From Thiobacillus sp. 0-1251 (GTDB lineage Bacteria; Pseudomonadota; Gammaproteobacteria; Burkholderiales; Thiobacillaceae): a DNA stretch of 64,000 nucleotides. The notes below the pieces were generated by a model, which worked only from the letters and a program-made list of their open reading frames with translations, was not told the origin of the DNA and made no database searches. The translations under genes and the position numbers were made by a program. Below, in pieces: positions 11,278 through 62,244 of this stretch. The stretch covers positions 124,001 through 188,000 of the forward strand of contig MKWL01000011.1 in assembly GCA_001899305.1 (NCBI GenBank). Reading direction: 5' to 3'. Position 1 is the stretch's first letter; each line of letters opens with the position of its first letter.

Positions 11278-11922
11278 TTGACTACTCACCAGAAGAACCA
11301 CGAAACCCTTGCCAGAGCAGCATCTGGCGACCCTGAAGCCGCAAGCGCGGCCGTTGGAATTCTGCTGCGCGGTATCCGCACTTATTTCCAGTGTGGAGGG
11401 CAAATTGACCTGGCGCGCTGCTGCGGGTTGCCGTCACCTACAGCCCGCCGCAAGTTCGATTTGCTGAATCGTGATTTGTGGCTGTGCGCAGCGGCCAGAC
11501 AGATCGAAGCGGATACGCCATGGGATAGGTCTGTCGCGCTGGGGCTGGAGTTGCGGAAATTTACAACGCGCATCTGGCCTGCATGGCAAGGTAAAGCCGA
11601 CCCGCCCCCCGGTGCATCGAAGTTGCACACCTGTCTGTTTCGCGCGGTATTGGCGACACCCGAGAAGATCCCAACCACCACCCGGCATCTGCATCGCATC
11701 GTTGGCGAAGCCGAAGCCAGCACGCAAAGGAGCTTGCACATGAAAACCATGGAAGTCATTGAAAGCGAGGCCAGCCTTGAATGGATGGCGTCGAGCTGGC
11801 TACGCGAAGAGTTCACAAGCCTGGAGGTCTATCTCGCATTTCGGCGCGCTGAAGCAAAGGGCCGGTTCAACTATGCCAGTGACAAAAACACGCCGTGCAA
11901 TGTCACGGGCCAGCAACCATGA
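11278..11922 (+). CDS. Unknown element protein, related to the 56206-56607 product
   Basis: 214 residues from a TTG with GAGGGGAAA upstream. Residues about 15-105 resemble most of the element 2 protein at 56206: a GDPEAASAAVGILLRGIR helix, a GLPSPTARRKFDLL segment, then WDRSVALGLELRKFTTRIWPAW. The C-terminal 40 residues (REEFTSLEVYLAFRRAEAKGRF) match a module in the next gene. No enzyme motif is visible. Being in both elements, it may be a core function such as regulation of packaging or replication; this is inference. Confidence 0.6.
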   Translation: MTTHQKNHETLARAASGDPEAASAAVGILLRGIRTYFQCGGQIDLARCCGLPSPTARRKFDLLNRDLWLCAAARQIEADTPWDRSVALGLELRKFTTRIWPAWQGKADPPPGASKLHTCLFRAVLATPEKIPTTTRHLHRIVGEAEASTQRSLHMKTMEVIESEASLEWMASSWLREEFTSLEVYLAFRRAEAKGRFNYASDKNTPCNVTGQQP

Positions 11923-11944
11923 TGTGATCAAAGGAGAGGCAACC

Positions 11945-12337
11945 ATGATGAACACTGACCAGGTACGAGCACAAGCCGCCCGCGAATTCGATTCGCGCCC
12001 CGCATTGGCTGAGGAGTTTTCGAGCAAAGAAGTCTATGTTGCCTTCAAGGCAGCCGAGGCCCGCGGCGCTTTCCGCATTTTCAGCAAACCGACCACAACG
12101 GCCCGCATTTTCAGCAAACCGGCCGCAACGGCCGCACCTGCCGCGCGCTCGAGCGCAGGTGTATCCAAGGCGCCGACCGGCACCATGTCGGTGCTTGATG
12201 CCATGGATGAGTTCAAGAGCGGCCGCCAAAGCTACTACCGGACCGATCTTGTCGCGCATGTGGCAAGCCGGACTGGCATGAGCCTTCACGATGCGTCTGA
12301 GGCAATTAAAGACACGGTGACGGGACATGGCCGATAA
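11945..12337 (+). CDS. Unknown protein with shared EEF-EVY-AF-AEA module and internal duplication
   Basis: 130 residues from the ATG at 11945, with AGGAGAGG upstream. Residues about 18-45 (LAEEFSSKEVYVAFKAAEARGAF) repeat the module at the end of the preceding protein. Next comes an internal duplication, ARIFSKPTTT / ARIFSKPAAT, and a low-complexity Ala-rich linker. The C-terminal domain (YRTDLVAHVASRTGMSLHDASEAIKDTV) is helical. No known function. Its end overlaps the tape-measure start by 11 nt. Confidence 0.6.
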   Translation: MMNTDQVRAQAAREFDSRPALAEEFSSKEVYVAFKAAEARGAFRIFSKPTTTARIFSKPAATAAPAARSSAGVSKAPTGTMSVLDAMDEFKSGRQSYYRTDLVAHVASRTGMSLHDASEAIKDTVTGHGR

Positions 12338-14813
12338 GAAACTGCGGTTCGACATAGAGGCCAACAGTGACGCCGCGCGGCGCGCGGTGGCCGATTTGCG
12401 GCGCGAATTCGACGCCACGCTGGCCGCGCTGAAAAAACAGCAGGGCGATATTGCGATTTTCAAGGCGGCGCAGCGAGATGCTGCCGCGCTTGAAAAACAG
12501 ATCAAGTCTCTGGGCAGGGCGGGCGGCGATACCACGGCGCTTAATGCCGCACTGGCGGCCCAGCGCGCCACGCTGGCGCAACTGTCCGCCTCATTGCAGC
12601 GGGCTGGCATTGATACCAATTCGCTGACCGCTGCGCAGGCCAGGCTTCGCGGGCAGGTCGAGCAGGTCAAACGGAATTTCGCCTCACAGGCGCAATCGGT
12701 AAACGATGAACTCGGCAATGTCGAGAAGCGATCGGCGGGCGTGGGCACCGCGCTGTCGGGCTTGTTCTCAAAGCTCGCATTCCAGCTTGGCGCCGTTCTC
12801 AGTGTCGGGAAAATCGCCGCGATGGCGGACGAATACAACAATTTGCAGGCCCGCCTGAAACTGGCCAGCCGCAACTCGGATGAGTTCGCCGCCGCGAATA
12901 CGGACGTCGTGCAGATTTCATCTGCAGCCCGTGTTCCGCTGGCACAGACCGCCGAGCTTTACGTGCGGATTGCCAGCAGTGTGAAAGACCTCGCCGTCTC
13001 GCAACGGGACGTTGCCGGCGTGACCGAGGCGGTTGCGCTGTCACTGAAACTATCCGGGGCCAGTGCGGCGGAATCCGCGGCTGCAATGCTCCAATTTTCA
13101 CAGGCTGTTGCGTCTGGCGTGCTGCGCGGCGATGAATTCAACTCGGTCAATGAGGCCGCGCCCCGGCTGCTGCAGGGTCTCGCTAGGTCGCTTGGCGTGC
13201 CAGTCGGTCAGCTGCGCGCAATGGCCCAGGCCGGCCAGCTTACCCGTGATGTTTTGATAGACGGCCTGTTGAAGGAACTGCCAACCCTGCGCAAAGAGGC
13301 CGCAAGCCTGCCGGATACCATCGGCAGCACGTTCACCAATCTGGGTAACAAGTTGCGCATTGTTGTCGGCCAGTTCGACCAGGCCACAGCCGCCAGCAAA
13401 GGTCTATCTGGCGTCATCAACGCGATCGGTACCACGGGAATCGAAACGTTGGCTGTTGTCGGTGCCAACGTCGTTTTTGTGTTCAAGGGAATCGGCGGCG
13501 AAATCGGCGGGATCGCCGCCCAACTCGTCGCGCTTGCCCATCTCGATTTCAAGGGATTCAAGTTCATCGGCGACTCGATGAAGAAGGATGCCGAAGAAGC
13601 ACGCCGGGAGCTCGATGCATTCGAAAAACGGGTACTCGAAGGCGGAAAGGCCGTCGTCAATTCGGCAGAAAAAACGACGCAGGCCACAGCGGCGGCGACA
13701 GTTGCCGTGGCTGCGTCGGTCAAGCAGCAGACCAAGGATCGCAAGGAAGCGGTGGGCGAGCAGATCAAGGATGCCGAGCGCCTGCGCGACGCGCTGATCG
13801 GCGCCTATGCCGATTCGCTGAAAACCGAAAAGGATTACCTGGCGCAGGCCAAAAAGCTGCGGGCGGAAGCGACGGCAACGCCGCGCGACAGATCAGTGGA
13901 AGGCCAGGCCGGCGCCACGCTCGGGCTGATTGCGGCCGAACAAAAGTTGCAGAACATTCGCGGCACCGGCTCGCTGGAAGAGGTACGCGCGCAGGTTGCT
14001 CTGGTGCAGCAGCTCGCCGCCGGTCTCGACGACCAGGCGCGCGCGACTGAAGCAGTCAACCGCGCCAAGCTGGCCGAGGCTGCTGCGCTTGAGCGCGCCG
14101 CAGCCGGCGAGGCTGAACAACAGGCAGCAATCACGAAACAACAGACGCTTAACGACGAACGCATCGGGCAACTCCAGGGCATTCTGAAGGCGCTGGAGGG
14201 TGGCAAGACCGTGACGCTCGACGCCAATGTCGAAGAGGCGCGCGTCGCGGTCGATCAGGTGAAGGAGTTGTGGGATGCGATCCAGGACAAGGCCGTGACG
14301 CTCACGATCAACCAGACCGGCACGGCCGCCGCGCTGCCCGCCAAGGCATCGGGCGGACTACTCCAGGGGCCTGGCACCGGCACCAGCGACGACATCCTGG
14401 CGCGGGTCTCAAACGGCGAATATGTGTTGCGCGCGGCGGCGGTGAAGAAGATCGGTCTTGCCCGCCTCAACCACATGAATCTCTACGGAAGTCTCCCCCG
14501 GTTTGCCGAAGGCGGTTTGGTCGAAGCCGCGCGCCGAGTGGTGGACAAGCAACGCGTCGACATCGCGGCAGCCGTCGACGCTGCTCGGGCTCGGTACAAC
14601 CCGCCTAAATTCGCCGGCGGTGGTCTCATTGCCTCCGCAGTTGGCAGCTTGCCGCGCCCTGCCGACTCTGGTGGCGCTGGTGGCAATGGCCAAGTGCTGA
14701 ACCTCACCCTGCCCGGCGTCGGCACGTTCGAGACACGCGCCAGCAGCGCCGTGGCCGCGGAACTTGAGCGCGCGGTGCGGATGGAAGCGCTTAAACATGG
14801 CAGGAGGGTTTGA
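12327..14813 (+). CDS. Phage tail tape-measure protein (element 1)
   Basis: 828 residues. An N-terminal coiled region is followed by the tape-measure core at about 160-340 (FSKLAFQLGAVLSVGKIAAMADEYNNLQ, SAARVPLAQTAELYVRIASS, SGVLRGDEFNSVNEAAPRLLQGLARSLG), matching the family named tape_meas_nterm. Long Ala/Lys-rich coiled coils fill about 400-650. The end has ASGGLLQGPGTGTSDDILARVSNGEYVL, usual for these proteins. In phages the length sets tail length, and tail-tube, chaperone and tip genes flank it; none is present here. Confidence 0.92.
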   Translation: MADKKLRFDIEANSDAARRAVADLRREFDATLAALKKQQGDIAIFKAAQRDAAALEKQIKSLGRAGGDTTALNAALAAQRATLAQLSASLQRAGIDTNSLTAAQARLRGQVEQVKRNFASQAQSVNDELGNVEKRSAGVGTALSGLFSKLAFQLGAVLSVGKIAAMADEYNNLQARLKLASRNSDEFAAANTDVVQISSAARVPLAQTAELYVRIASSVKDLAVSQRDVAGVTEAVALSLKLSGASAAESAAAMLQFSQAVASGVLRGDEFNSVNEAAPRLLQGLARSLGVPVGQLRAMAQAGQLTRDVLIDGLLKELPTLRKEAASLPDTIGSTFTNLGNKLRIVVGQFDQATAASKGLSGVINAIGTTGIETLAVVGANVVFVFKGIGGEIGGIAAQLVALAHLDFKGFKFIGDSMKKDAEEARRELDAFEKRVLEGGKAVVNSAEKTTQATAAATVAVAASVKQQTKDRKEAVGEQIKDAERLRDALIGAYADSLKTEKDYLAQAKKLRAEATATPRDRSVEGQAGATLGLIAAEQKLQNIRGTGSLEEVRAQVALVQQLAAGLDDQARATEAVNRAKLAEAAALERAAAGEAEQQAAITKQQTLNDERIGQLQGILKALEGGKTVTLDANVEEARVAVDQVKELWDAIQDKAVTLTINQTGTAAALPAKASGGLLQGPGTGTSDDILARVSNGEYVLRAAAVKKIGLARLNHMNLYGSLPRFAEGGLVEAARRVVDKQRVDIAAAVDAARARYNPPKFAGGGLIASAVGSLPRPADSGGAGGNGQVLNLTLPGVGTFETRASSAVAAELERAVRMEALKHGRRV

Positions 14814-14814
14814 T

Positions 14815-15765
14815 ATGGGTGCGCAATCGATCACCGAAAAAGGCGTAAAGGGCGAGTTCTTCTCCGCGTTGGAACGCAGCCTCGCCGGGCATTGGGTTAG
14901 CGATTTGGCACTGGCCACCGGCAGCGACCAGGCTTTAGAACAGCACGTCTGGATCTGGGGCGAGCCCATGCGCGAATGGGTAGCGGGGCGTTTTGCCAGG
15001 GCCGCCCGTGAGGACGGGATAGGCATTCGAAACCGCACGTTTGAGGGAACGATCGAGGCGTTTCTGGATGAAATCCGCCGCGACAAGACCAGCCAAGTGA
15101 TGCTGCGCGTGCGTGATCTCTCGGCGCGATCGGTTGAGCTTTGGGCGAAGATGATCGCGGAACTGGTCAGTGCTGGCGAGACTGAAACCTGCTACGACGG
15201 GCAGCCATTCTTCAACCCCGCGCATGTGCGGCAGCAGACTGGCCTCGACGCTAACCCGCAGTCGAATCGGTTTACCTCACCAGCAGCATCCCCGACAGCG
15301 CCCACTGGCGAAGAGATATTGGCCGCTGTGTGGGTAGGCATCCAGGCCATCCTGACCGTCGTCGACTATGACCTGGAGCATATGAACCTGGGGGCTACGC
15401 GCTTCACCGTGTTCATGCCTGCTGGTTATGCGGCCGCCGCTGGCCGTGCATTCAACTGCCCGGCGCTGATCCGGCGCGAAGGGCGCATTGTTGACGTGCA
15501 GGCGTCGCTCGGCGGCGGAATCATTGTGCGGTTGGTCCCGATGCCCAGCACGTGGCTTGGCTGGACCGACCGGATTGCGGTTTTCAGGGCAGACGGCGAT
15601 ACCGCCAAGGCTTTCATCCGCCAGGAGGAGCACATAACGATTTCAGAATCTCCCGCCGGTGGTCAGACTGCCTTTAACGAAGACAAGCGGTTGTATGGAG
15701 TCAGTTCCAGCCGTGGCGTCGGTTTCGGTCTTTGGGAGCATGCCGCTCTCGTACAGTTCACTTGA
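14815..15765 (+). CDS. Mu gpT-like major head (capsid) protein
   Basis: 316 residues from the ATG at 14815, with CAGGAGG upstream, directly after the tape-measure stop. The block HVWIWGEPMREWVAGR, the FEGTIEAFLDEIRRDK segment and CYDGQPFFNPAH match the Mu-like head subunit gpT family (HK97-type fold). It lacks the usual partners: no portal (gp29-like), protease/scaffold (gpI) or terminase gene is in the element. It may form a small shell, be incorporated into a helper's capsid, or interfere with its assembly. Confidence 0.82.
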   Translation: MGAQSITEKGVKGEFFSALERSLAGHWVSDLALATGSDQALEQHVWIWGEPMREWVAGRFARAAREDGIGIRNRTFEGTIEAFLDEIRRDKTSQVMLRVRDLSARSVELWAKMIAELVSAGETETCYDGQPFFNPAHVRQQTGLDANPQSNRFTSPAASPTAPTGEEILAAVWVGIQAILTVVDYDLEHMNLGATRFTVFMPAGYAAAAGRAFNCPALIRREGRIVDVQASLGGGIIVRLVPMPSTWLGWTDRIAVFRADGDTAKAFIRQEEHITISESPAGGQTAFNEDKRLYGVSSSRGVGFGLWEHAALVQFT

Positions 15766-17542: not shown

Positions 17543-17550
17543 GCCATCTG

Positions 17551-17642: not shown

Positions 17643-17662
17643 GGCTTGCCCTGGGGGGATAA

Positions 17663-18049: not shown

Positions 18050-18051
18050 CA

Positions 18052-18085
18052 ATCTGATTTTATTATTAATCTATATAAATCAGAT
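18052..18085. repeat. Inverted repeat next to the right attachment site
   Basis: ATCTGATTT (18052-18060) and AAATCAGAT (18077-18085), perfect 9-bp arms with a 16-nt AT-only spacer apart from one C. It lies between the subterminal repeat and the tRNA end, and could be a binding site for the excision machinery. Confidence 0.55.
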
Positions 18086-18097
18086 ATTTATGAATAC

Positions 18098-18191
<94 letters not shown>

Positions 18192-53233: not shown

Positions 53234-53309
53234 TCCCCGATAGCTCAGTCGGTAGAGCGACGGACTGTTAATCCGCAGGTCCCTGGTTCGAGCCCAGGTC
53301 GGGGAGCCA
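53234..53309 (+). tRNA. tRNA-Asn (anticodon GTT)
   Basis: 76 nt: acceptor TCCCCGA pairs with TCGGGGA, then G and an encoded CCA. D-arm AGCTCAGTCGGTAGAGC, anticodon loop CTGTTAA, T-loop GTTCGAGCC. From the anticodon loop to past the 3' end (53265-53312) the sequence is repeated at 61834-61881, marking it as the attachment site of element 2. It is intact. Confidence 0.97.
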
Positions 53310-53312
53310 AAT
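53265..53312. repeat. attL of element 2 (inside tRNA-Asn)
   Basis: 48 bp from the anticodon loop (CTGTTAATCC) to GGAGCCAAAT just past the tRNA. Identical to 61834-61881. Confidence 0.95.
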
Positions 53313-53386
53313 TCCTTTAGTTTCAAGCCCTTGTCGGGCCTCTGCTAAGACCGCCGATCTAAATCGGCACCACTTAGGAGCCTGAC

Positions 53387-54343
53387 ATGAAAGAAGCTGA
53401 ACATGCCCAAGCTGTTGCCGCAGCCGGCACCACCCTCGCGGAGATCGCGGAGGCCTATCTCGACGCCTACAAGGGCCGGGACAGTTCGCGCTATCACCGC
53501 CTCAACACCTGGAAACGCCTGCTCGGCGGCAAGGTGCTGAGCGAGATCACTCCAGACGATATCGACGACGCCATGCGCGTGCTGGCCAGCGAGCCCGCGC
53601 GCGTATACGGTGGCCGCGACGCCGACGACAATCCCATCTTCCGCAAGAAATCAGGCCAGCGCAGCGGCGCGACCCTGAACCGTTACCAGGTCGCGCTCGC
53701 CGCGCTGTTCACCTGGGCGAAGCGGCAGCGCCTGGTGCCGCGCGGCTTCGACGCCCCCACTCGCCACGTCGAGAAGCGCACCGAAACGCGCGGTCGCGTG
53801 CGCTACCTCACTGACGACGAACGCACCCGTCTGCTCGCCGCCTGCCTCGAATCGCCGTGGCCGCGGCTTTATGTGTTCGTGCTGATGGCGCTTACCACGG
53901 GCGCACGGCGCGGCGAACTGCTCGGGCTGCGCTGGTGCGACGTTGATCTGGAGCGCGCCGAGGCCATACTACACGACACGAAAAACGGCGACCGGCGCGT
54001 CCTGGTGCTGCTACCGCAAGTGGTCGCCGAACTGGTGCGCTTCGCCCCCAAGGATGTGCCGACGTCGCAGGCGCTGGTCTTCCGCAGCCGCCTGCGGCCA
54101 TCGCAGCCCTACGCCACAGCCAAGGTCTTCAACGAAGCCGTGGCCATCGCCGGCATAAAGGACTTCCGCTTTCACGATTGCCGGCATTGCACGGCGTCTT
54201 ACATGGCGCAGAGCGGCGCGTCACTGCTTGAGATCGCCGACACCCTCGGGCATCGCCAACTGCGCATGGTGCAACGGTATGCGCACCTGAATACGGACAG
54301 CCGGCGGCGCCTGATGGCGCGGGTTTTCGAGGGCAAGATGTGA
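53387..54343 (+). CDS. int: Tyrosine recombinase (integrase) of element 2
   Basis: 318 residues, AGGAG upstream of the ATG. The catalytic set is complete: Arg174 (TGARRGELLGLRW), Lys199 region, HDCRH (His263, Arg266), His289 (LGHRQ) and Tyr298 (QRYAHL). It lacks the DUF4102 domain of the element 1 enzyme and is not closely related to it. It starts 74 nt after tRNA-Asn. Its stop overlaps the next start (GTGA). Confidence 0.96.
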   Translation: MKEAEHAQAVAAAGTTLAEIAEAYLDAYKGRDSSRYHRLNTWKRLLGGKVLSEITPDDIDDAMRVLASEPARVYGGRDADDNPIFRKKSGQRSGATLNRYQVALAALFTWAKRQRLVPRGFDAPTRHVEKRTETRGRVRYLTDDERTRLLAACLESPWPRLYVFVLMALTTGARRGELLGLRWCDVDLERAEAILHDTKNGDRRVLVLLPQVVAELVRFAPKDVPTSQALVFRSRLRPSQPYATAKVFNEAVAIAGIKDFRFHDCRHCTASYMAQSGASLLEIADTLGHRQLRMVQRYAHLNTDSRRRLMARVFEGKM

Positions 54344-54633
54344 AAAAGTCAAATGATCTCTTCGAGATTATTGAGCGCGTAGGAAAGCGAGAAAAGATGT
54401 CGGACGAAGACATCAAACGCGTGATTGATACAACCCGTACCGTATTCGGTGGAAAGCACATTTCGATTCCGGGAGGCACGAAGGAAGCCGCAGACAAGCG
54501 CAACAGCAGCATTATCCGGGACCGTGAAAATGGAGTCCCGGTGGATGTCATCATGACCAAGCACGGGTTGAGCCGCGCGGCCGTCTATAAAATTCTCAAG
54601 CTCAAAAAAATGCAACCAATCCGGCCTAAATAG
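54340..54633 (+). CDS. Mor-like transcriptional regulator
   Basis: 97 residues from a GTG overlapping the integrase stop. A C-terminal helix-turn-helix (NSSIIRDRENGVPVDVIMTKHGLSRAAVYKILK, about residues 55-88) follows an N-terminal helical part. This resembles the Mor/middle-operon regulator family of Mu-like phages. It probably controls element genes; the target is unknown. Confidence 0.6.
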   Translation: MKKSNDLFEIIERVGKREKMSDEDIKRVIDTTRTVFGGKHISIPGGTKEAADKRNSSIIRDRENGVPVDVIMTKHGLSRAAVYKILKLKKMQPIRPK

Positions 54634-54702
54634 TAGACAGATTCTCCTTACGCTTAGTCACGTAGGCGCACGGCAAGGCGCTTGAAGCAAAAGGAGAATG
54701 AA

Positions 54703-54933
54703 ATGCAGCACACCGAGTTACCACCCCTCGACGAATACGTCGACCTCAAGAGCCTACTCGATAACGTAAAGCAGGCGTTCCCAACCGAAGATAGCGTGCG
54801 CTGGTTCGTGCGTCGGCGCCGGGACGCGCTGGCAGAGTCCGGCGCGGTAATCATCATCGCCGGGCGCATGCGTTTCCACCCACAGCGATTCAAGCAAGCT
54901 GCCGTCGAAATCGGGCAGCGCGCAGCCGGTTGA
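54703..54933 (+). CDS. Small basic protein, probably DNA-binding
   Basis: 76 residues from the ATG at 54703, preceded by AAGGAG. The helices LKSLLDNVKQAF and EDSVRWFVRRRRDALAESGAVI then GRMRFHPQRFKQAAVEIG look like a small winged-helix or excisionase-type fold found in integrative elements. Family not firmly recognised. Confidence 0.55.
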   Translation: MQHTELPPLDEYVDLKSLLDNVKQAFPTEDSVRWFVRRRRDALAESGAVIIIAGRMRFHPQRFKQAAVEIGQRAAG

Positions 54934-54944
54934 AAAGGCACCCA

Positions 54945-55055
54945 ATGAAATCCCCGCCCCCCACGTTGAACGCATGCGGTGACGCCGTTGCGCGTGCAAC
55001 GACGCAACAACAACCATGCAACGGGTCCTCCCCAGCGAAAAGCATATGCGGATAA
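54945..55055 (+). CDS. Possible 36-residue frame
   Basis: ATG at 54945 to TAA at 55053-55055, starting MKSPPPTLNACGD, with AAAAGG upstream. Rich in Pro, Ser and Cys; no family. Probably not functional. Confidence 0.2.
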   Translation: MKSPPPTLNACGDAVARATTQQQPCNGSSPAKSICG

Positions 55056-55130
55056 AAGGACCGCGTGTTTTTTCTAGGGCGTGGGGTGGCTGCATAGGCA
55101 ACCAGCAACAGCTTGAACCGAAAGGATGAT

Positions 55131-55457
55131 ATGAGATCCGCATTGCACCAGGCGCGCCGACAGGCGGCCGGCTTCAAAACCACCGGCAAACCACGTGGCG
55201 AACCACTTGCAAACCACGGGCAAACATCGCTGGAACCCGCGCCAGCACTTATCCTAGAAAAAACCACGGGGACGCCACCGTCACATGCGCACATGCGCAC
55301 ATGCGTACACATGCGCACGCGCGCCCCCGTGCACGTACCTCCCCTGTATGTGCCGTGGTGTGAGTTGTATCAATGCCTTAGCGGTGGTTTTGCCGTGGTT
55401 TCCAAGTGGCTTGCCCGTGGTTTTCCCCTTGCGCTCACTTCTCGGGTGGCCAAATGA
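55131..55457 (+). CDS. Uncertain frame spanning the iteron region
   Basis: 108 codons starting MRSALHQARR, with AAAGGATG before the ATG; its stop overlaps the next gene's ATG (ATGA), as a coupled gene would. But the composition is odd, with repeated THA/HMR residues produced by the DNA repeats, and it contains both iteron arrays. It may be a non-functional passage through an origin region. Confidence 0.3.
   Translation: MRSALHQARRQAAGFKTTGKPRGEPLANHGQTSLEPAPALILEKTTGTPPSHAHMRTCVHMRTRAPVHVPPLYVPWCELYQCLSGGFAVVSKWLARGFPLALTSRVAK
55178..55422. repeat. Two opposed arrays of 11-bp-phased AACCAC motifs (candidate origin)
   Basis: AACCAC starts at 55178, 55189, 55201, 55212 and 55262; its complement GTGGTT/GTGGCT starts at 55384, 55395, 55406 and 55417. 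Spacing is 11-12 bp, one helical turn. The two arrays form an imperfect inverted repeat of about 45 nt around a central alternating purine-pyrimidine tract. Confidence 0.75.
55282..55324. repeat. 43-bp perfectly alternating pyrimidine-purine tract
   Basis: Strict Y-R alternation over 43 bases, made of four CACATGCG units and a CGCGCGC end. Such tracts can adopt left-handed DNA and melt easily. It lies between the two iteron arrays. Confidence 0.85.
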
Positions 55458-56074
55458 GCGCCGGCGACAAGACCGATCCGGCCGCGATGACGCGAGGCGT
55501 GCAGGTTGCTGGCCGGGCTTTCAGCTCTCTGCTGCGCGTTGCCAACGCTGCAGGCCTACCGCGCGATGTGGCGATTCAGTGCGCCAGCCGCGGGGCGGCC
55601 GCGATCACAGGGGTGGATCTGCTCGCCGTGCTCGGCATAGCCGAGACCCGGCCGGCCGGGCTTGGACTTGGATCCGATCTCGATACGACACCACGTCAGC
55701 CAAAAACAGGCGGGCGCATTTCAAACGCGCAATCCCGCGAGTATGGAATCCCCGCGTTCGTCGCAGCATGGAAAGAAAACCGCCTGCCCGTTCCCCATAC
55801 CGTGTGTCGGACGAGTGAGCTGTATCGCGCGTACCTGCTTTGGTGTCAGGGCACGGACACTGATCCGATCAGCATCCGGAACTTCCTGCGGAAAATCGAA
55901 CAGGGCGATCCGGAAGTGTCGCGGGCGTCGATGAAAGTGGACGGCCGCACAGCCCGGCTGCTCGTGCCAGGTGGATATCGCCGAAAGATTCCCATGGACA
56001 TGTGGACGGCGCACGCCGCCGTGGAGGCCACCCGCTTTCGCACTTCGCTCCTGACCTGGGAGAGTGCGGACTGA
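55454..56074 (+). CDS. Replication-associated protein with primase-tail-like region
   Basis: 206 residues from the ATG at 55454, overlapping the previous stop. Residues about 110-150 (VCRTSELYRAYLLWCQGTDTDPISIRNFLRKIEQG) match the small winged-helix tail found at the end of D5/P4-type primase-helicases. The helicase and primase parts are absent. The protein may bind the neighbouring iterons. This is inference from position and a short similarity. Confidence 0.5.
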   Translation: MSAGDKTDPAAMTRGVQVAGRAFSSLLRVANAAGLPRDVAIQCASRGAAAITGVDLLAVLGIAETRPAGLGLGSDLDTTPRQPKTGGRISNAQSREYGIPAFVAAWKENRLPVPHTVCRTSELYRAYLLWCQGTDTDPISIRNFLRKIEQGDPEVSRASMKVDGRTARLLVPGGYRRKIPMDMWTAHAAVEATRFRTSLLTWESAD

Positions 56075-56187
56075 TGTGCGGGCGTCATCGCTATTCAAGG
56101 GGGGCGGGGGCGCGGCGGCTTAGTGCCGACATTGGTTCGCTCAAGGCACTGGGCCCCCTTCGCGCCATCGAAGGGGGCGGGGAATAG
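56074..56187 (+). CDS. Possible 37-residue frame
   Basis: ATG overlapping the previous stop (TGATG), starting MCGRHRYSRGAG. Very G-rich DNA. It ends beside a strong hairpin. Weak evidence as a gene. Confidence 0.2.
   Translation: MCGRHRYSRGAGARRLSADIGSLKALGPLRAIEGGGE
56154..56177 (+). promoter_or_regulatory. Strong hairpin upstream of the shared unknown gene
   Basis: CCCCCTTCG (56154-56162), 6-nt loop, CGAAGGGGG (56169-56177): a perfect 9-bp stem, about 28 nt before the GTG start at 56206. There is no T run, so it is not a standard terminator. Confidence 0.55.
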
Positions 56188-56205
56188 CGCCCCGGCCAGC
56201 TTCGC

Positions 56206-56607
56206 GTGGATCTTATTCTGGCATTCATGCGCGGAGACGCATCACCCGAGGCCGTTGCGGAGGTCGCAGCTGGCATGCGGCGCTGGGTCAGCCAAACGTC
56301 GGACGATCCGCTGCCACTCAACCGAATGCACGGCCTTGGTAGTCCACTCGCGACCCGAATGGAACTGCGCAATTCGCTGGTGACCGATGCCTCAATGCTG
56401 CTCGAAGGAAGTCGCTGGAGCCGATGCAAGCAACTGGCCGAACTCGCCCGCAAATTTCACGCTGGTCGATACGACGTTTGGCGCCGCCTGGGCATACCTG
56501 CCGGCACGAGCGACGTCGATAGATTGCTGTTCGATGCGTGCGATTTGGGCGAGCCGTTGCCACGTACGCCAGAGAGTTACCTAAGCATTTTGCCCCCGCC
56601 TACTTAG
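56206..56607 (+). CDS. Unknown element protein, related to the 11278-11922 product
   Basis: 133 residues from a GTG. MRGDASPEAVAEVAAGMRRWV, HGLGSPLATRMELRNSLV and SRWSRCKQLAELARKFHAG align with GDPEAASAAVGILLRGIR, CGLPSPTARRKFDLL and WDRSVALGLELRKF in the element 1 protein. It lacks the other's C-terminal 40-residue module. It lies directly before the capsid gene. Function unknown; it is one of the few proteins common to both elements. Confidence 0.6.
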   Translation: MDLILAFMRGDASPEAVAEVAAGMRRWVSQTSDDPLPLNRMHGLGSPLATRMELRNSLVTDASMLLEGSRWSRCKQLAELARKFHAGRYDVWRRLGIPAGTSDVDRLLFDACDLGEPLPRTPESYLSILPPPT

Positions 56608-56655
56608 TGCGCGCTGCGATACGGTGCAGATACCCAAACAGACACGAGGCGAATC

Positions 56656-57654
56656 ATGGCAGACCAACTCTGGACCTCCCGCGAGATCAAAGAATTCTCG
56701 ATGCGGCGCGCACTAATCGGCGCAGCCGAAGGCACTCTCGCCAAAACCTACGAAGGCGGCATGCTGCGCGAATTCTCACAGGTCACCGGCAAGCCGGTTA
56801 CCGAAAATGGTTTCGTTCTGCCGTTCGAAGTGATGCGGCGTGACCTGACGGCGGCCAGTGCCTCCGGCGCGGCGCTGATCGGAACCGAGGCACCTTTTGC
56901 GCTCGACGTGTTGCGGCCTTACACCGCAACGCTGCGCAGCGGCGCGCAGATGATGCGTTTCAAGGGCGACGTCTCCGTTCCAAAGGTCGCGGCCCCTTCT
57001 ACCGTCACCTGGCTGCCGGATGAGTTTTCCGCGATCACCGAGAGCCAGGCCACCCTCGGCGAGATGGCGCTGTCTCCCAAGGATGCCGCCATTCTGACCC
57101 AGGTGAGCGCAAAGCTGACGCGACAGACCGATATCGACGCCTTCCTGCGGCGCGAGTTGCTCCGCTCCATGGGCACCGGGCTGGACCAGGCGATTTTTAG
57201 CGGCTCCGGCACCAGCGGCCAGCCCCAGGGCATCATCGGCACAACCGGTGTTCTCGGCGTATCTGGCACCTCGCTCGATTGGGATGGCGTGACGGACATG
57301 CTGTACACCGTTGCGGAGGCAGACGGCCAGGAGGGTGTAGCTTGGTTCGCGCCTCCCGCCGTTCGGCGCCTACTGTCGCGGCGCGAGCGCATAACTGGGG
57401 GCGGGTTTTCGATCTGGCATGACAACGTGCTGGCGGGCTATCCGGCCATTGCCTCGAGGGTCGCGCCGGCCGATACCCTGATCGTCGGGGCGTTTGGCGA
57501 AGTTGTGATTGCGCTATTTATGGATGGCATCGAGATCATGGTTAACCCTTACAGCGATTTCACCCGCGGGATCATTTCGTACCGGGCTTGGCTGTCGGTC
57601 GATATTGCGGTCACCGCACCCGGTGCCTTCTGCGTTGCGGAAAGCATCACGTGA
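56656..57654 (+). CDS. HK97-family major capsid protein (element 2)
   Basis: 332 residues, ATG at 56656, with GAGGCGA upstream. HK97-fold landmarks: an N-terminal arm, VLRPYTATLRSGAQMMRFKGDVSVPKVAAPSTVTWLPDEFSA, RELLRSMGTGLDQAIFSGSGTSGQPQGI, and VNPYSDFTRGIISYRAWLSVDIAV. No scaffold domain or protease gene precedes it, and the usual portal/protease/capsid order is absent. Of a different branch from the gpT-like protein of element 1. Confidence 0.9.
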   Translation: MADQLWTSREIKEFSMRRALIGAAEGTLAKTYEGGMLREFSQVTGKPVTENGFVLPFEVMRRDLTAASASGAALIGTEAPFALDVLRPYTATLRSGAQMMRFKGDVSVPKVAAPSTVTWLPDEFSAITESQATLGEMALSPKDAAILTQVSAKLTRQTDIDAFLRRELLRSMGTGLDQAIFSGSGTSGQPQGIIGTTGVLGVSGTSLDWDGVTDMLYTVAEADGQEGVAWFAPPAVRRLLSRRERITGGGFSIWHDNVLAGYPAIASRVAPADTLIVGAFGEVVIALFMDGIEIMVNPYSDFTRGIISYRAWLSVDIAVTAPGAFCVAESIT

Positions 57655-57920
57655 TCGCGCCGGGGCTTTTCCGTGCGGTTCGCCGGTTCTATATGGACGG
57701 CAAACCTGTTGAAGTCGGCACCCTGCTCGAACTCGCCGATAACGAGCTGATCGGCGACCTCATGAGCGGGCAACGCATCGAGCCTGCCAACGTCGCCACG
57801 AAGGAGCGCGTTCACTGCGAGCCGACGCTGGCGTTCAAGGAAGCGGGCGGGGTCAGCAGACACGGCGTAGCGAAAGATGACACGCGGCGTGTCTCTCACC
57901 TGGGCTTGGTCCGTAAATGA
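57651..57920 (+). CDS. Small unknown protein next to the capsid gene
   Basis: 89 residues from a GTG overlapping the capsid stop (GTGA). It includes FYMDGKPVEVGTLLELADNELIGDLMSGQRIEPAN, a fold often seen in small phage genes near the head-tail region. It may be a capsid decoration or connector-like protein. No firm family. Confidence 0.55.
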   Translation: MIAPGLFRAVRRFYMDGKPVEVGTLLELADNELIGDLMSGQRIEPANVATKERVHCEPTLAFKEAGGVSRHGVAKDDTRRVSHLGLVRK

Positions 57921-58116
57921 ATTCCGACTGCCGGCAGGGCGAGGTGCCCACGTTCATAGCCTGTCCGGCTTTAGTCACCAGCGATGACGTGGACTGCAGC
58001 CGATAACGCCGTCGGCTGGGCGGATACAGGTAGACCCGCGGCCTCCTTACCACCCATGCGTGGGTAAATAAGGTCTGCGAAAACCGCCACCCCTATTCAA
58101 TATTGGAGGCCGTGAA
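57921..58116. other. 196-bp spacer
   Basis: No gene. It contains a weak CCACCCATGCGTGGGT dyad near 58053. The end carries the ribosome site GGAGG of the tape-measure gene. Confidence 0.3.
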
Positions 58117-60123
58117 ATGGCAGCTGAATTTGCCCAAATTCTCATCCGCGCCAAGGATGACACCAAGTCCGCTTTCGATAGCGCGCAGCGGAATATGCGC
58201 GGGCTCGAATCGAGCGCCGCAAAACTCTCAGGCCTGCTGAGCACGATCGGCATCGGCGCCGGGCTCTCGGTGGTGGGTCTCGCCGCCTTCGCCAAGTCCG
58301 GAATCGATGCGGCCGACGGCCTCAACGACATGAGCCAGCGCCTCGGCGTCTCGGTCAAGGATCTCGCCTCGTTCAAGCTCGCCGCCGAGCAGAGCGGCAC
58401 CAGCCTCGACAGCGTCGGCAAGGGAATCCAGAAGCTGACCCTGTCGATCGGTCAGGCCGAGCAGGGCCTGTCCACTCAGGCCAAGGCGCTCAAAACCCTG
58501 GGCATCACCTCGCGTGATTCCAAGGAAGCATTTTTCCAGCTGGCGGATGCCGTTGCCAGTTCGAATGACCCGATCAAGACCAACGCCGCGCTCAACGATG
58601 TGCTGGGCAAGCGCTACGCCGAACTGCTGCCCTTGCTGAGCCAGGGCGGCGACGCCCTGCGCGAGTCTGCGCGCCAGTCCGAGACGTTTGCCGAGGCCAT
58701 GTCGCGGCTCGCGCCGAATGCCGACAAATTCAACGATAGTCTCGCCACGCTTAAGATCAACGCTGCTGGAGCTGCGGCAAATGGGCTGATCCCCCTGGTT
58801 GATGCAATCAATCGAGTAGTTGAGCGATTTGAGACCATCAGCAAATTGAAAAGCGCAACCCTGGGTGAGATTCTCACAGGTCAATTCAGCGCTGATCTAC
58901 CTGCTAGCATTGCACGTGTAAATCGCGAGATAGCAACCACGCAAAAAGAACTCAGTCTTATTCCAAAGGGCGGTTTTGATCCGTTCGGAGATCGCGCAGC
59001 CCTGGACGAGAAACTTTCCCGCCTGCAAAAACTCAAGGCAGAATATCGCGCGATTTCTATGCAAGGTGCTCTGGTTCTCGCTGAACAGCAATACAAAAAG
59101 ACACCATCTGGCGCTGACAACAGCATAAAACTACCCGCATCGATGACGACTAAGGCCGATCCGCTGGCCGGCCTGCTTCGCTCCACCGACATCGGACGCC
59201 TGCAGGAATTCGACAAGCAGGTGGCGCTGCTCAACCAGCGTTTCGACGGCGGGCGCAAGAATACCGAACTCTATACCCAGGCCATGACCAAGCTGGTCGA
59301 GTCGACCTTTTCCAACAACTTCAAACAGGCGGCGGACGATGCCGAATTCTTCCGCCTGGTCGAGGCGGATGGAATCAAGACCACGCTGGAATGGAAACAA
59401 AACCTGGACGACCTGGCCAACATCGACATGAGCCGGCTCAACGATCTGCTGGCCAATACCGATTTCTCGAAGCTCCAGAAAAGCCAGGAAGACATGATCC
59501 TGCTGGCACGGGCCTTCAGCGAAGGCATCAAGGATGCCGACGGCAACCTGCGCAAGCTGTCCGAATCGGAATACCTGGACGCCGTGGCGACGCGCCTGGG
59601 TTTGGCCAAGGACAAGGTGGCAGAGCTCGACACCTTCGCCAAGACCGCCGCCGAGAACATCCAGAACAGTTTCGCCGACTTCCTGTTCGATCCTTTCGAC
59701 AAGGGTCTCAAGGGCATGGCGCAGAGCTTCGGCCAAACGGTCCAGCGCATGATCGCCAATGCCGTCGCCGCCGATCTCGCCAAAAATCTGTTCGGCGGCC
59801 TGGCTGACAATGGCGCCACCAGCGGTAGCGGCTGGGCTGGGTCCGCGCTGAACTGGATTGGCGATCTGCTTAAATTCGATGGCGGCGGCTACACAGGCGA
59901 CGGCGCGCGCGCTGGCGGGATCGACGGCAAGGGTGGGTTTCTCGCCGTGATGCACCCGCGCGAAACCGTCGTCGACCATACGCGCGGGCAAAGCGCTGGC
60001 AGCGGCCACACCGTGATCGTCAACGTCTACGGCAGCAACAACGCGCCGGACGTGCGCCGCGCTGCAGGGCAGGGCGCGCGCGAAGCGCTCGCCCTGCTAG
60101 AAGGGGCGCGCCGCTATGGATGA
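58117..60123 (+). CDS. Phage tail tape-measure protein (element 2, lambda-like)
   Basis: 668 residues. The start FAQILIRAKDDTKSAFDSAQRNMRGLE and membrane-like segment LSTIGIGAGLSVVGLAAFAKSG are typical of tape-measure N-termini, and a conserved alpha-helical middle follows (LGVSVKDLASFKLAAEQSGTS). The C-terminus (FDGGGYTGDGARAGGIDGKGGFLAVMHPRETVV) is the usual glycine-rich end. It is shorter than the element 1 protein by 160 residues, so it would specify a shorter tail if it acts as a ruler. Preceded by GGAGG. Confidence 0.93.
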   Translation: MAAEFAQILIRAKDDTKSAFDSAQRNMRGLESSAAKLSGLLSTIGIGAGLSVVGLAAFAKSGIDAADGLNDMSQRLGVSVKDLASFKLAAEQSGTSLDSVGKGIQKLTLSIGQAEQGLSTQAKALKTLGITSRDSKEAFFQLADAVASSNDPIKTNAALNDVLGKRYAELLPLLSQGGDALRESARQSETFAEAMSRLAPNADKFNDSLATLKINAAGAAANGLIPLVDAINRVVERFETISKLKSATLGEILTGQFSADLPASIARVNREIATTQKELSLIPKGGFDPFGDRAALDEKLSRLQKLKAEYRAISMQGALVLAEQQYKKTPSGADNSIKLPASMTTKADPLAGLLRSTDIGRLQEFDKQVALLNQRFDGGRKNTELYTQAMTKLVESTFSNNFKQAADDAEFFRLVEADGIKTTLEWKQNLDDLANIDMSRLNDLLANTDFSKLQKSQEDMILLARAFSEGIKDADGNLRKLSESEYLDAVATRLGLAKDKVAELDTFAKTAAENIQNSFADFLFDPFDKGLKGMAQSFGQTVQRMIANAVAADLAKNLFGGLADNGATSGSGWAGSALNWIGDLLKFDGGGYTGDGARAGGIDGKGGFLAVMHPRETVVDHTRGQSAGSGHTVIVNVYGSNNAPDVRRAAGQGAREALALLEGARRYG

Positions 60124-60412
60124 GATCGACAAGATGGTTTTCTTGAAACTCGCCAAGGGTCAGCAGGATGCAACTTTGCATTTATGGCAAGCGCTTGTCG
60201 GGGTATTGCTAGCCACTGGGGCGCTGCGGCCTGATGTCTTGCGCGCCATGCTGGTTTACTGCGCTGATCATGTGCCGACCGAATCACCGTCCCAAGGAAT
60301 TCTGATTCGTGCCCGCCAGGACCTCGATGCCGCGCTGGCTCAGCAAGACACTAGCGGCAAACCAGCGTGGTTTCGGGGAGTGATAGACGGCGATAAGGGG
60401 CGGTCGATTTAA
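60116..60412 (+). CDS. Small unknown protein after the tape measure
   Basis: 98 residues, starting MDEIDKMVFLKLAKGQQDATLHLWQALVGVLLATG. Overlaps the tape-measure end by 8 nt. A hydrophobic helix (LWQALVGVLLATGAL) may be a membrane or tail-tip segment. No family known. Confidence 0.55.
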   Translation: MDEIDKMVFLKLAKGQQDATLHLWQALVGVLLATGALRPDVLRAMLVYCADHVPTESPSQGILIRARQDLDAALAQQDTSGKPAWFRGVIDGDKGRSI

Positions 60413-60495
60413 AACGCGCTGTGACGATTTTGGCGTGTGCGCTACACTCCCCGCGACGCTAAGAACGAGTTACATCCGAAAACCACGAACTCCCC

Positions 60496-61347
60496 ATGAA
60501 AGAACAGCTTTCTCTCAAATACTCCGGCCCGGCAGTGGATGACGGACAAATGGATGCCTATGAAGCGGCAGCCGGAATTATTGCTTTTGCCGACTTTATC
60601 TCCTTGGCGGCTCGCGCCGCATATGGTGAACAGGCCAAGATCAAAACAGAGGTTCGAGCTTTCGAGCATGGCTCATTCATGGTGCAGTTCGCGCTCGATT
60701 TTGGCGGCATTTTGGCGACGCTTTTTTCTGGCGTAGTAAGCCCCAAGGAGATGTACGAATTGATCCGCCAAAGCTTTGAAGCCTGGAAGCATCTTCAAGG
60801 CGAGAACCCGGCCAGCACCACGACGCTACAAGACGGCTCAATTCGGGTGGAGAACACACACGGGCAGGTTGCGATCTACCGCGCAGAGACCATCAATATC
60901 ATCACCAATCCAGACGCGGCAAATGCGGCGCAGCGTTTCGCTGCGAAGCCTTTGTTGCAGGGTATGGATTCTGTTTCCATTTCGCATGGCAATGAACAGA
61001 TTGCCGATGCGAATACCTCGGACGCGTCCTATATCGGCGTTCTCATCGCCCGTGAAACCTTAACTGAAAACCTGATTACTCAGTGGGTCCTACTTGAGTC
61101 TCCCGTATTCAGGGACGGGAATAAGTGGCGTTTTTCGGATGGCAGTACAAGCTTTTGGGCGGATGTTGAAGACCGCGATTTCCTGGCACAGGTTGAGTCG
61201 GGACGAAGATTCGGCAAAGGCGACCGAATGCTTGTGGAAATGCGGCTAAGACAGTCTGGCACGATTACCGCCCTCAAACAGGAGCGGTCAGTTGTGCGCG
61301 TTATTGATCACAAGCCACCTGCAACGCAGCACCCCTTGAGTATCTGA
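60496..61347 (+). CDS. Unknown accessory protein (element 2 cargo)
   Basis: 283 residues, lower in GC than the structural genes. N-terminal half: LSLKYSGPAVDDGQMDAYEAAAGIIAFADFISLAARAAYGEQAKIKTEVRAFEHGSFMVQFALDFGGILATLF, a pattern seen in a family of hypothetical proteins in mobile islands. Middle: INIITNPDAANAAQRFAAKPLLQGMDSVSI. C-terminal beta-rich part: FWADVEDRDFLAQVESGRRFGKGDRMLVEMRL. Position between the tape measure and the end of the element marks it as cargo; a defence role is possible but not shown. Confidence 0.6.
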   Translation: MKEQLSLKYSGPAVDDGQMDAYEAAAGIIAFADFISLAARAAYGEQAKIKTEVRAFEHGSFMVQFALDFGGILATLFSGVVSPKEMYELIRQSFEAWKHLQGENPASTTTLQDGSIRVENTHGQVAIYRAETINIITNPDAANAAQRFAAKPLLQGMDSVSISHGNEQIADANTSDASYIGVLIARETLTENLITQWVLLESPVFRDGNKWRFSDGSTSFWADVEDRDFLAQVESGRRFGKGDRMLVEMRLRQSGTITALKQERSVVRVIDHKPPATQHPLSI

Positions 61348-61479
61348 ACAAGGTCGTGCGCTGTTTGCTTTTTGTGCGACTGCGCGTAGGATGAATGCGC
61401 CGGCATTGTGTCGGTGCGGGGCGATCCAAGTGTTGTAGCACGAGGCCCGCCCCTGACCACCACGTTAAAGGAGAACGCA

Positions 61480-61725
61480 ATGGCTTCCAGTATTCTACCC
61501 CGCAGCAATCCGACTCAATTAGCCGACGACGTCGAGTATCAGGTTTCGTCGATCAATGCCGCGATCAGAATGATCCGAGATGAACTCGCCGTTTCACGTG
61601 ACGACCAAGAGAAAGTTGCAGAAGCCGTCGACAGACTTTTTTACCTGACGGATGGACTAGAGGCAGTTCAGGCCAGACTTCAGCGGATTGCTGATTCAGC
61701 TCGTGAGCTTGCCTTGGCGGATTGA
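61480..61725 (+). CDS. Small coiled-coil protein at the end of element 2
   Basis: 81 residues from the ATG at 61480, with AAAGGAG upstream (an in-frame start at 61408 is less likely). The helices VEYQVSSINAAIRMIRDEL and DRLFYLTDGLEAVQARLQRIADSAREL are strongly amphipathic. Terminator 15 nt after the stop. No function known. Confidence 0.6.
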   Translation: MASSILPRSNPTQLADDVEYQVSSINAAIRMIRDELAVSRDDQEKVAEAVDRLFYLTDGLEAVQARLQRIADSARELALAD

Positions 61726-61740
61726 CTGACTACCAAACCA

Positions 61741-61779
61741 AGCACACAAAACCCGGCCGCGTGTCGGGTTTTTTGTGCT
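61741..61779 (+). terminator. Rho-independent terminator at the end of element 2
   Basis: AGCACACAAAACCCG (61741-61755), loop, CGGGTTTTTTGTGCT (61765-61779): 15-bp stem with one mismatch and a T run inside the right arm. It separates element genes from attR. Confidence 0.85.
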
Positions 61780-61833
61780 TTCAGTCACGCGCCTAAATGT
61801 GTCAAAATGCGGCTAGTAGAGGCTCCGATAGGC

Positions 61834-61881
61834 CTGTTAATCCGCAGGTCCCTGGTTCGAGCCCAGGTCGGGGAGCCAAAT
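61834..61881. repeat. attR of element 2
   Basis: 48 bp identical to 53265-53312 (tRNA-Asn 3' half). The upstream half of the tRNA is absent here, so this is not a second tRNA gene. Confidence 0.95.
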
Positions 61882-62244
61882 ACAGAAAGGCCCGCAGAGA
61901 TGTGGGCCTTTTGCTTTTGTGGCGCTAGTAGCCCCATAGTAGCCAGCCTACGTCTTCTCCCTTGAGCAATTCACTCACCTTTACTAGCAGCCAAACTAAG
62001 AGCCCGTCCGGTCTGACATTTAGGCTCCGTGCCGCAGACAAGGAATGGTCAGTGGTCGCCTGGCTAAAGTCTGTATTATTCCGACAGCCGTTAGACTCAA
62101 GCAGATGCATAAATAATCGATTATCTGCTTCTAACGATAGACGGTAGTCGCCCATAACTGCCGCCATTACTACACACGACATGTCCGCAACTGGGGATGA
62201 TGAATCACTAAGCTTTCCACATAGCTAGGCAAAACATTTCACTT
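61882..62244. other. 363-bp spacer after attR
   Basis: AT-richer than the core. It contains repeated TAGTAG words near 61928-61945 and an ATCGATTAT-type AT patch near 62110. No convincing gene; both strands show only short frames without ribosome sites. It probably holds the promoter for the next gene. Confidence 0.4.

What the first reader, a model, noticed from the sequence alone, without database searches (positions are those of the whole stretch)
53265..61881. Element 2: tRNA-Asn element with capsid and tape-measure genes but no portal, terminase or tail
Seen: 48-bp flanking repeats, an intact integrase, an HK97-type capsid gene (56656-57654) and a full tape-measure gene (58117-60123) with only an 89-residue frame and a spacer between them. 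Known: capsid-forming phage satellites keep head genes and borrow tails, and tape-measure length fixes tail length. A satellite that brings its own shell and its own tail ruler but nothing else would be a new arrangement: it could change both particle size and tail length of a helper phage. An alternative is interference with helper assembly.
Basis: partly seen in the sequence, partly recalled or inferred. Interest (0 to 1): 0.9.

Follow-up and report, generated by a model that had tools for sequence, protein, structure and literature searches.

The report
Satellite carrying capsid and tail ruler
A small mobile DNA element in a Thiobacillus-like bacterium appears to be a phage parasite that brings its own shell protein and its own tail-length protein and would have to take the other virion parts from a helper phage; related elements repeat this odd two-part kit.

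Summary
Confirmed: an 8.57-kb element sits in tRNA-Asn (51-bp repeats, 50/51; integrase; the tRNA's terminator hairpin now lies beyond the far repeat). It has one HK97-type capsid gene, one full-length tape-measure gene, and no recognisable portal, terminase, protease or other tail gene. A lone decaying prophage is unlikely: five other species of the genus carry elements at the same tRNA with 83-90% identical integrases, each with a capsid gene; the window's capsid falls in a satellite-only clade (support 100/99.9) that keeps the shell domain, while four of five long capsid frames tested carry a fused protease domain. Capsid plus tape measure without other tail genes seen nearby recurs in seven elements found here, including the window's other element. 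Most likely a phage satellite that supplies its own shell and tape measure to a helper's virion. Satellite tape measures are not new: Nature 2026 (PMC12987554) showed PLE satellites building chimeric tails with their own and lists putative tmp genes in cf-PICIs. New here is the minimal kit and its recurrence. Against autonomy: no replication or TerS gene was identified in this copy, unlike its five sisters. No experiment exists.

The parts
53234..53309 (+). tRNA-Asn (gtt), integration target
   Evidence: ARAGORN; Rfam
53262..53312 (+). left attachment repeat (att), inside the tRNA 3' part
   Evidence: 51-nt direct repeat, 50/51; a 98% copy lies downstream in three other genomes with sister elements (G055, G066, G103)
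53387..54343 (+). tyrosine integrase, 318 aa
   Evidence: Pfam 1e-26; 83-90% identical in sister elements L022, L026, L065, L070, L134
54340..54633 (+). Mor-like HTH regulator, 97 aa
   Evidence: Pfam Mor 3.5e-6; PHROG late transcriptional activator 1e-8; 38% homologue in satellite L023
54703..54933 (+). o83, small conserved satellite protein of unknown function (start set by homologues)
   Evidence: 72-80% identity in L022, L026, L065; 41-61% in L070, L134, L144, L239, L241, L246
55454..56074 (+). o206, unknown; not related by profile comparison to the TerS-like proteins or helicases of sister elements
56206..56607 (+). o133, conserved protein just upstream of the capsid gene in related satellites
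   Evidence: alignments A1, A3; profile hits 7 of 399 order genomes, incl. the window's other element
56656..57654 (+). major capsid protein (HK97 type), shell domain only, no fused protease, 332 aa
   Evidence: tree
57693..57920 (+). small ORF after the capsid gene (75 aa; 110 aa from an earlier TTG)
   Evidence: gene; similar small ORFs follow the capsid gene in satellite L023 (31%) and in phage contigs L303, L315
58117..60123 (+). tail tape measure protein, 668 aa
   Evidence: 55% identity over aa 1-286 to the tape measure of phage contig L294
60116..60412 (+). o98, overlaps the tape-measure end; 13-residue C-terminal match to the ORF after the tape measure in L061
60496..61347 (+). cargo: candidate anti-phage defence protein, 283 aa
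   Evidence: PADLOC PDC-S42 4.1e-52; PHROG 3243 5.7e-42
61408..61725 (+). 105-aa ORF, unknown
61748..61772 (+). terminator-like hairpin at the end of the element
   Evidence: 11 such sites found against 9.4 expected by chance, so weak alone
61831..61881 (+). right attachment repeat (att)
61885..61912 (+). the tRNA's own terminator hairpin, displaced by the insertion
   Evidence: a similar hairpin directly follows tRNA-Asn in several genomes without this element there
11290..15765 (+). comparison only: the window's other element (near tRNA-Ser) with o133-like ORF 11290-11721, tape measure 12327-14813 and major head protein 14815-15765 (PHROG 371)

Best explanation
The element is a phage satellite. 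On infection by a suitable siphophage it would be excised by its integrase, copied, and packaged in particles whose shell is built from its own major capsid protein and whose tail is built around its own tape measure, while portal, terminase, prohead protease, tail tube and tail tip come from the helper. Shown: the insertion, the intact genes, the absence of recognisable other structural genes, the repeated occurrence of the same kit in relatives, and a satellite-only capsid lineage. Inferred: helper dependence, particle composition and transfer. The likely gain is that a satellite-specific shell fits and favours the satellite genome, while a satellite-specific tape measure lets its particles form when the helper's tape measure is blocked or outcompeted, as shown for PLE11. 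Tape measures are the reported targets of at least two tail-blocking proteins, Tab and Rta.
For: att repeats, tRNA target and displaced terminator. Capsid and tape measure intact, no other structural family matched, with Pfam detecting portal and TerL in cf-PICI-like elements of the same survey. Five other species carry elements at the same tRNA with 83-90% identical integrase and an o83 homologue, each with a capsid gene and a TerS-like gene. Capsid in a 6-row satellite-only clade, 100/99.9, against 49 other rows. Shell domain without fused protease, whereas annotated phage homologues are frames of 602-836 aa and four of five long frames tested carry a Peptidase_S78 domain before the capsid domain. 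Seven elements with capsid plus tape measure and no other tail gene seen nearby, with capsids of different best families (PHROGs 617, 10, 4523, 371). Six phage/satellite switches forced on the tape-measure tree. No portal (PF05136, PF04860) or GpA terminase (PF05876) in the host genome, so no resident helper of those types. Precedent of a satellite tape measure in chimeric tails.
Against: This copy has no recognisable primase, helicase or TerS-like gene, although the other five elements at the site have both; it may be partly decayed or fully dependent on the helper. No helper is known and no particle, excision or transfer has been seen. Of the six elements at this site only two have a tape measure (a third, L026, is cut by its contig end just past the capsid gene), so it is optional. 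The tape measure's closest relative is a phage gene (L294, 64% over 229 columns), so in this element it is a rather recent capture; outside aa 1-286 no significant similarity to it was found. PLE carries a tail assembly chaperone and a baseplate hub with its tape measure; here neither is recognisable.
Confidence: 0.6

Rival explanations
1. Interference element: the orphan capsid and tape measure are dominant-negative parts that poison the assembly of an infecting phage and protect the population, together with the PDC-S42 candidate defence gene; no transfer is needed.
For: Cargo matches a candidate defence family. Tail assembly is a known point of attack, and the tape measure is the reported target of Tab and Rta. 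Orphan assembly parts could act in this way.
Against: Integrase, att sites and site-specific relatives point to a mobile element. The capsid lineage is kept intact over large divergence (31-44% identity to the window's) inside mobile elements. A poison role does not explain why sister elements pair the capsid with TerS-like and replication genes.
Confidence: 0.2
2. Remnant of a prophage that lost portal, terminase and tail genes and by chance kept capsid and tape measure.
For: Gene order capsid - small ORF - tape measure agrees with phage late modules. The tape measure has a close phage relative. This copy lacks the replication module.
Against: The same kit recurs in seven elements of different sites, hosts and capsid families. 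The capsid sits in a satellite-only clade. In the four sister elements seen on both sides of the capsid gene (L022, L065, L070, L134) I noted no fragment of portal or large terminase in the gene calls. Frames are open end to end, and no tblastn trace of relatives' replication genes remains.
Confidence: 0.12
3. Domesticated particle: the host uses the shell and tape measure for a gene-transfer-agent-like or compartment function, without a helper.
For: The capsid profile also matches capsid Rcc01687 (5e-5), which from recall is that of the Rhodobacter gene transfer agent.
Against: No terminase, portal, tube or lysis gene recognised here, and none of the three portal or terminase families searched in the host genome. 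Patchy distribution: tRNA-Asn sites without this element in the genus.
Confidence: 0.05

Closest known systems
PLE satellites of Vibrio cholerae (PLE11, PLE1, PLE4; Nature 2026, PMC12987554)
   Same: Satellite-encoded tape measure; for PLE11 shown by blot and mass spectrometry to replace the helper's in chimeric tails about 10 nm shorter; tmp deletion cuts transduction of the three PLEs by 96-99.9% (section 8 read).
   Different: PLE11 virions hold the helper's capsid proteins, PLE carries a TAC (PLE11 also a baseplate hub) with the tape measure, and ICP1 has a contractile tail. The present element has its own capsid gene, no recognisable TAC or hub, and its nearest tape-measure relative lies in a tail module without a sheath gene in view. 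Sequence relation to PLE proteins was not tested.
Capsid-forming PICIs (cf-PICI)
   Same: Integrated satellite with its own HK97-type capsid gene and a borrowed tail; the 2026 paper notes putative tmp genes in a sampling of cf-PICIs.
   Different: cf-PICIs carry capsid, protease, portal, connectors, TerS, TerL and HNH (definition as quoted in PMC10690885). This element has only the capsid. Four cf-PICI-like elements found here have capsids in a separate clade (100/99).
P4-like satellites, PICI and PICMI
   Same: Small integrated elements that depend on a helper.
   Different: They are not known to encode a capsid or tape measure of their own; P4 resizes the helper's shell (passage), PICMIs have no capsid-remodelling genes (abstract in listing); the rest from recall.
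Tab, Tai and Rta tail-assembly defences
   Same: Tail assembly as a control point; Tab and Rta act on the phage's tape measure (passages; Tai from the start of an abstract).
   Different: Those are inhibitor proteins; here the element encodes a full tape measure.

Membership tests
Integrated mobile element (site-specific, tyrosine integrase) | integrase, att repeats, tRNA target, empty site in relatives | tested here: met
cf-PICI | HK97-type major capsid gene | tested here: met
cf-PICI | portal | tested here: not met
   no portal family among the element's frames; portals of cf-PICI-like L285 and L287 are detected by Pfam
cf-PICI | large and small terminase | tested here: not met
   the five sister elements have a TerS-like protein (PHROG 57, 1.3e-4 to 1.3e-22) but no large terminase seen
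cf-PICI | head maturation protease | tested here: not met
   capsid matches only positions 273-624 of 626 of PHROG 617; no Peptidase_S78 in it while four of five long capsid frames show it; no other protease frame
cf-PICI | capsid falls with cf-PICI capsids | tested here: not met
   cf-PICI-like capsids form their own clade, 100/99; the window's is elsewhere
PLE-like tail-remodelling satellite | own tape measure | tested here: met
PLE-like tail-remodelling satellite | own tail assembly chaperone and baseplate hub | tested here: not met
   no tail PHROG for any other frame scanned; o98 after the tape measure has no match and could hide one
PLE-like tail-remodelling satellite | tape measure incorporated in satellite virions | not testable with these tools
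   needs particles
Phage satellite (functional sense) | mobilised by a helper phage | not testable with these tools
   no helper identified; none of three portal/terminase families in the host genome
Phage satellite (functional sense) | own replication module | tested here: not met
   not identified in this copy, present in the other five elements at the site

The most novel reading that the evidence does not exclude
There is a class of satellites whose structural kit is reduced to two proteins, the shell protein stripped of its protease and the tape measure, which together set head and tail dimensions. It has arisen repeatedly: the trees need six phage/satellite switches for the tape measure and about three for the protease-free capsid, and the two are paired in at least seven elements with capsids of different families. 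Such satellites would make doubly chimeric virions, their own shell and own tape measure mounted on helper portal, packaging motor, tube and tip.
Probability: 0.4. Interest if true: 0.8.

Novelty: new variant of a known kind. Interest (0 to 1): 0.62.

Why it matters
Satellite control of tails was reported only in 2026 and its benefit is not settled. Elements that keep just a shell protein and a tape measure, gained repeatedly, separate what a satellite must own from what it can borrow. They make two questions directly testable: how one capsid protein without protease or portal of its own is matured on helper parts, and why a satellite should own the tape measure. They also widen tail-remodelling satellites to environmental betaproteobacteria, and predict chimeric particles that virion proteomics would reveal.

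Tried and rejected
Close relatives of the capsid in genome and viral collections by short peptide patterns of the window protein: none; whole-genome and profile searches were needed. Idea that o206 is a TerS or a remnant of the D5-type helicase: profile comparison gave no relation, in spite of a weak D5-like Pfam hit (0.17). Idea that satellite tape measures are always shorter: in the family survey six satellites have 558-668 aa and 23 others 473-1419, Mann-Whitney p 0.0016, but the nearest phage tape measure to the window's has 656 aa, so I do not rest the case on length. Of the 32 places, 29 entered that comparison (one of the 23, L074, is of unclear kind); two had no locus, and L073 (821 aa, a prophage by context) was left out by oversight. 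Idea that all protease-free satellite capsids are one clade: not rejected in the smaller tree (AU 0.54), rejected at p 0.046 once viral contigs were added; only the six-row clade with the window is claimed. Promoter scan: nothing. PDB profile search for o133: nothing convincing. Structure prediction of o133 and of the capsid was never run: the machine was busy each time.

Limits of labels: satellite or phage was decided from my own gene calls, BLAST against a small reference set made from these loci, and reading; Pfam and PHROGs were run on a subset. In the tape-measure trees 'phage' means 'not shown to be a satellite'. Eighteen of those rows were then known only from about 4-kb stretches (looked at, where L227 gave no gene call), and one, L229, proved satellite-like when its surroundings were fetched (L317: primase by PHROG, no tail neighbour seen) after the trees were built. 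Six rows (L066, L067, L086, L087, L090, L091) were dropped from the second tape-measure tree; with them in, and without L294, the count is also six but starred branches force only two. For order-level context I fetched mainly the shorter tape measures: 19 such places, of which four (L239, L241, L246, L257) looked satellite-like and four (L243, L251, L252, L253) stayed unclear, so frequencies there are not unbiased. Only 10 of 22 viral capsid loci were read for context and 19 of 22 entered the tree. Of five long capsid frames tested for the protease domain, L070 (itself a satellite at the same tRNA) did not show it at 0.001.

Papers: PMC12987554, passages and section 8 read; PMC10884400, PMC10690885, PMC11389934, PMC10872708, PMC4936722, passages; PMC11364771 and PMC10803314, start of abstract in listings only. 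Searches for prior reports of capsid plus tape-measure satellites; nothing beyond the 2026 paper was seen, in a library that misses most subscription journals and holds no bioRxiv collection.
Full report
THE OBSERVATION. The element is real. A 51-nt repeat (50/51) at 53262-53312 and 61831-61881 overlaps the 3' part of tRNA-Asn(gtt), 53234-53309. Of 29 tRNA-Asn loci of other genomes of the genus given to, 26 could be scored: four have the element's left end after the tRNA (52-57 of 60 positions; these are genomes with sister elements), nine have a flank that matches the window's flank beyond the right repeat better than any of 200 shuffles, and the other 13 match neither clearly. In several of the nine the tRNA is followed at once by a G+C-rich hairpin of the type GGCCCGC...GCGGGCC; in the window such a terminator (61885-61912) lies beyond the right repeat. 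The tRNA terminator has therefore been pushed 8.57 kb away by an insertion.

GENES. Integrase, Mor-like regulator, o83, o206, o133, capsid, small ORF, tape measure, o98, a 283-aa protein matching candidate defence family PDC-S42, and a 105-aa ORF, all on the + strand. The capsid matches Pfam Phage_capsid at 3.3e-25; the tape measure matches four tape-measure PHROGs at 1e-13 or better. None of the 13 frames scanned matches a portal, terminase, protease, tube, terminator, chaperone or tip family. The method is not blind to these: the portals and large terminases of two cf-PICI-like elements met in the same survey are called by Pfam at 1e-36 or better.

SISTER ELEMENTS AT THE SAME SITE. Five other species of the genus have an element at the same tRNA-Asn with an integrase 83-90% identical and an o83 homologue: L022, L026, L065, L070 and L134. 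Named relatives from the integrase search with the highest identity are mostly Thiobacillus assemblies, so the host is probably a Thiobacillus (inference). Each sister element has a capsid gene, of several types: L022 and L026 like the window's, L065 a short member of the 'head and protease' family (PHROG 4523, 2.7e-32; Pfam Phage_capsid_4), L070 a 605-aa long form, L134 another major head protein (PHROG 10, 2.4e-28). All five have a primase or helicase module and a TerS-like gene (PHROG 57, 1.3e-4 to 1.3e-22); in the window's copy neither was found, nor any trace of the relatives' replication genes by tblastn. In none of these gene calls did I see a portal, large terminase or tail tube; L026 is cut by its contig end 269 bases beyond the capsid gene. 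L065 also has a tape measure (562 aa).

CAPSID PLUS TAPE MEASURE RECURS. Counting elements in which both were found and no other tail gene was seen nearby: the window element; the window's other element near tRNA-Ser (828-aa tape measure, PHROG 3519 6e-78, directly followed by a 316-aa major head protein, PHROG 371 6e-28), whose tape measure is unrelated by BLAST to the first; L065; L064 (tape measure, capsid 39% identical to L065's); L239 in another family of the order (capsid PHROG 617 9.5e-75; order integrase fragment - o83 - CHC2-like primase - D5 helicase - capsid - 77 aa - tape measure); L246 in a further family, again at a tRNA-Asn(gtt); and L257, which also carries a Mu-type transposase and is the least certain. 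That is seven. L061, L062 (which also has TerS, TerL and one minor tail gene), L241 and L317 have a tape measure but no capsid gene in the stretch seen; L088 is cut by its contig. L021, L022, L023, L070, L134, L144 and L237 have a capsid but no tape measure in the stretch seen; L025 and L026 are cut after the capsid. In numbers, the window's tape measure has matches in 22 of 117 genomes of the family (32 places; 23 of the 29 places examined were not satellites) and its profile in 57 of 399 of the order (not all examined); the capsid in 17 of 117 and its profile in 26 of 399; the o133 profile in 7 of 399.

TREES. In the capsid tree (55 rows) the window's protein sits with L021, L023, L025, L026 and L284 on a branch with support 100/99.9 that holds no phage or prophage. 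L284 starts 60 bases from a contig end, so its upstream genes are unknown. The other short satellite capsids (L022, L237, L239) do not join that clade; L239 sits with two viral contigs. Short capsids in satellites thus need about three changes on the tree, while the four cf-PICI-like capsids form their own clade. Annotated phage homologues are long frames, 632 aa in VP882, 836 in S-CBS3, 602 in phiHAP-1, 674 in Mica; a portal was seen beside the long capsid frame in 8 of 10 viral contigs examined. A prohead protease domain (Peptidase_S78) was found in four of five long frames tested, L070 being the exception. In the tape-measure tree (52 rows) the nine satellite rows need six changes, all forced by well-supported branches, and a single satellite clade is rejected (AU 4e-41); L064, L065 and L088 form one satellite clade (100/100), while the window's gene lies beside L061 and viral contig L294, a phage tail module. 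L229, counted there as phage, later looked satellite-like. The simplest reading is repeated exchange of tape measures from phages into satellites, and in the window a fairly young one.

MECHANISM. Shown: insertion, gene content, recurrence, separate capsid lineage. Inferred: use of helper portal, packaging motor, protease, tube and tip. The precedent is direct: PLE11 puts its own tape measure into helper tails, its tails are about 10 nm shorter, and tmp deletion costs the three PLEs tested 96-99.9% of transduction (PMC12987554, section 8). The same paper reports putative tmp genes in other satellites, a sampling of cf-PICIs included. Two tail-blocking proteins act on the phage's tape measure (Rta; Tab), which gives a reason for a satellite to own a different one. 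Tail length is not needed for the argument: the nearest phage tape measure compared has almost the same length (656 against 668 aa).

AGAINST. This copy lacks an identified replication and TerS gene; the host genome has no portal of PF05136 or PF04860 and no GpA terminase, so a helper would have to come from outside; only two of six elements at this site have a tape measure (one of the others is cut); and nothing has been seen to move. A pure interference role is the main rival.

NOVELTY. Tail control by satellites is known since 2026, own capsids since cf-PICIs. New is the reduced kit, one protease-free shell protein plus one tape measure, in betaproteobacteria, repeated with different capsid families. 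In the literature searches made I saw no report of it. I file it as a new variant of a known kind: it works like a tail-remodelling, capsid-supplying satellite, but fails the cf-PICI definition on portal, terminases and protease.

Noticed in passing
window 8319-18191: A second element near tRNA-Ser carries a tape measure (12327-14813), a major head protein of PHROG 371 (14815-15765), an o133 homologue (11290-11721) and only a primase fragment; no att repeat of 25 nt or more was found around it.
   Followed up: partly
window 10737-10844: Tandem 18-nt repeats (CCCTCCCGCTGGGGTTAC units) inside the tRNA-Ser element, possibly iterons of an origin.
   Followed up: no
window 60496-61347: Cargo gene matches PADLOC candidate defence family PDC-S42 (4e-52) and PHROG 3243; distant relatives in Listeria and Lactobacillus phages.
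   Followed up: partly
L062 (G013:C4), 4325-9431: A satellite-like element with tape measure, minor tail protein, TerS and TerL but no capsid or portal in the stretch: nearly the complement of the window's kit.
   Followed up: partly
L257 (G080:C46), 7724-15906: Mu-type transposase and AAA protein next to a PHROG-371 head protein and a tape measure related to that of the window's tRNA-Ser element: perhaps a transposing satellite or a Mu remnant.
   Followed up: partly
tRNA-Asn of the genus: The tRNA-Asn site looks like a hotspot: several genomes have one or more further partial copies of the att repeat downstream at about 1.3 to 11.4 kb; small unexplored elements may lie there (L136-L138 fetched, not read).
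   Followed up: no
L285-L288 (G462, G489, G212, G376): Four cf-PICI-like elements by reading (portal and TerL confirmed by Pfam in L285 and L287 only), without a tape measure in the stretches listed.
   Followed up: partly
o133 family (alignment A3): A small protein found in satellites with capsids of several types, mostly just upstream of the capsid gene; no known family, no convincing PDB match; function unknown.
   Followed up: partly
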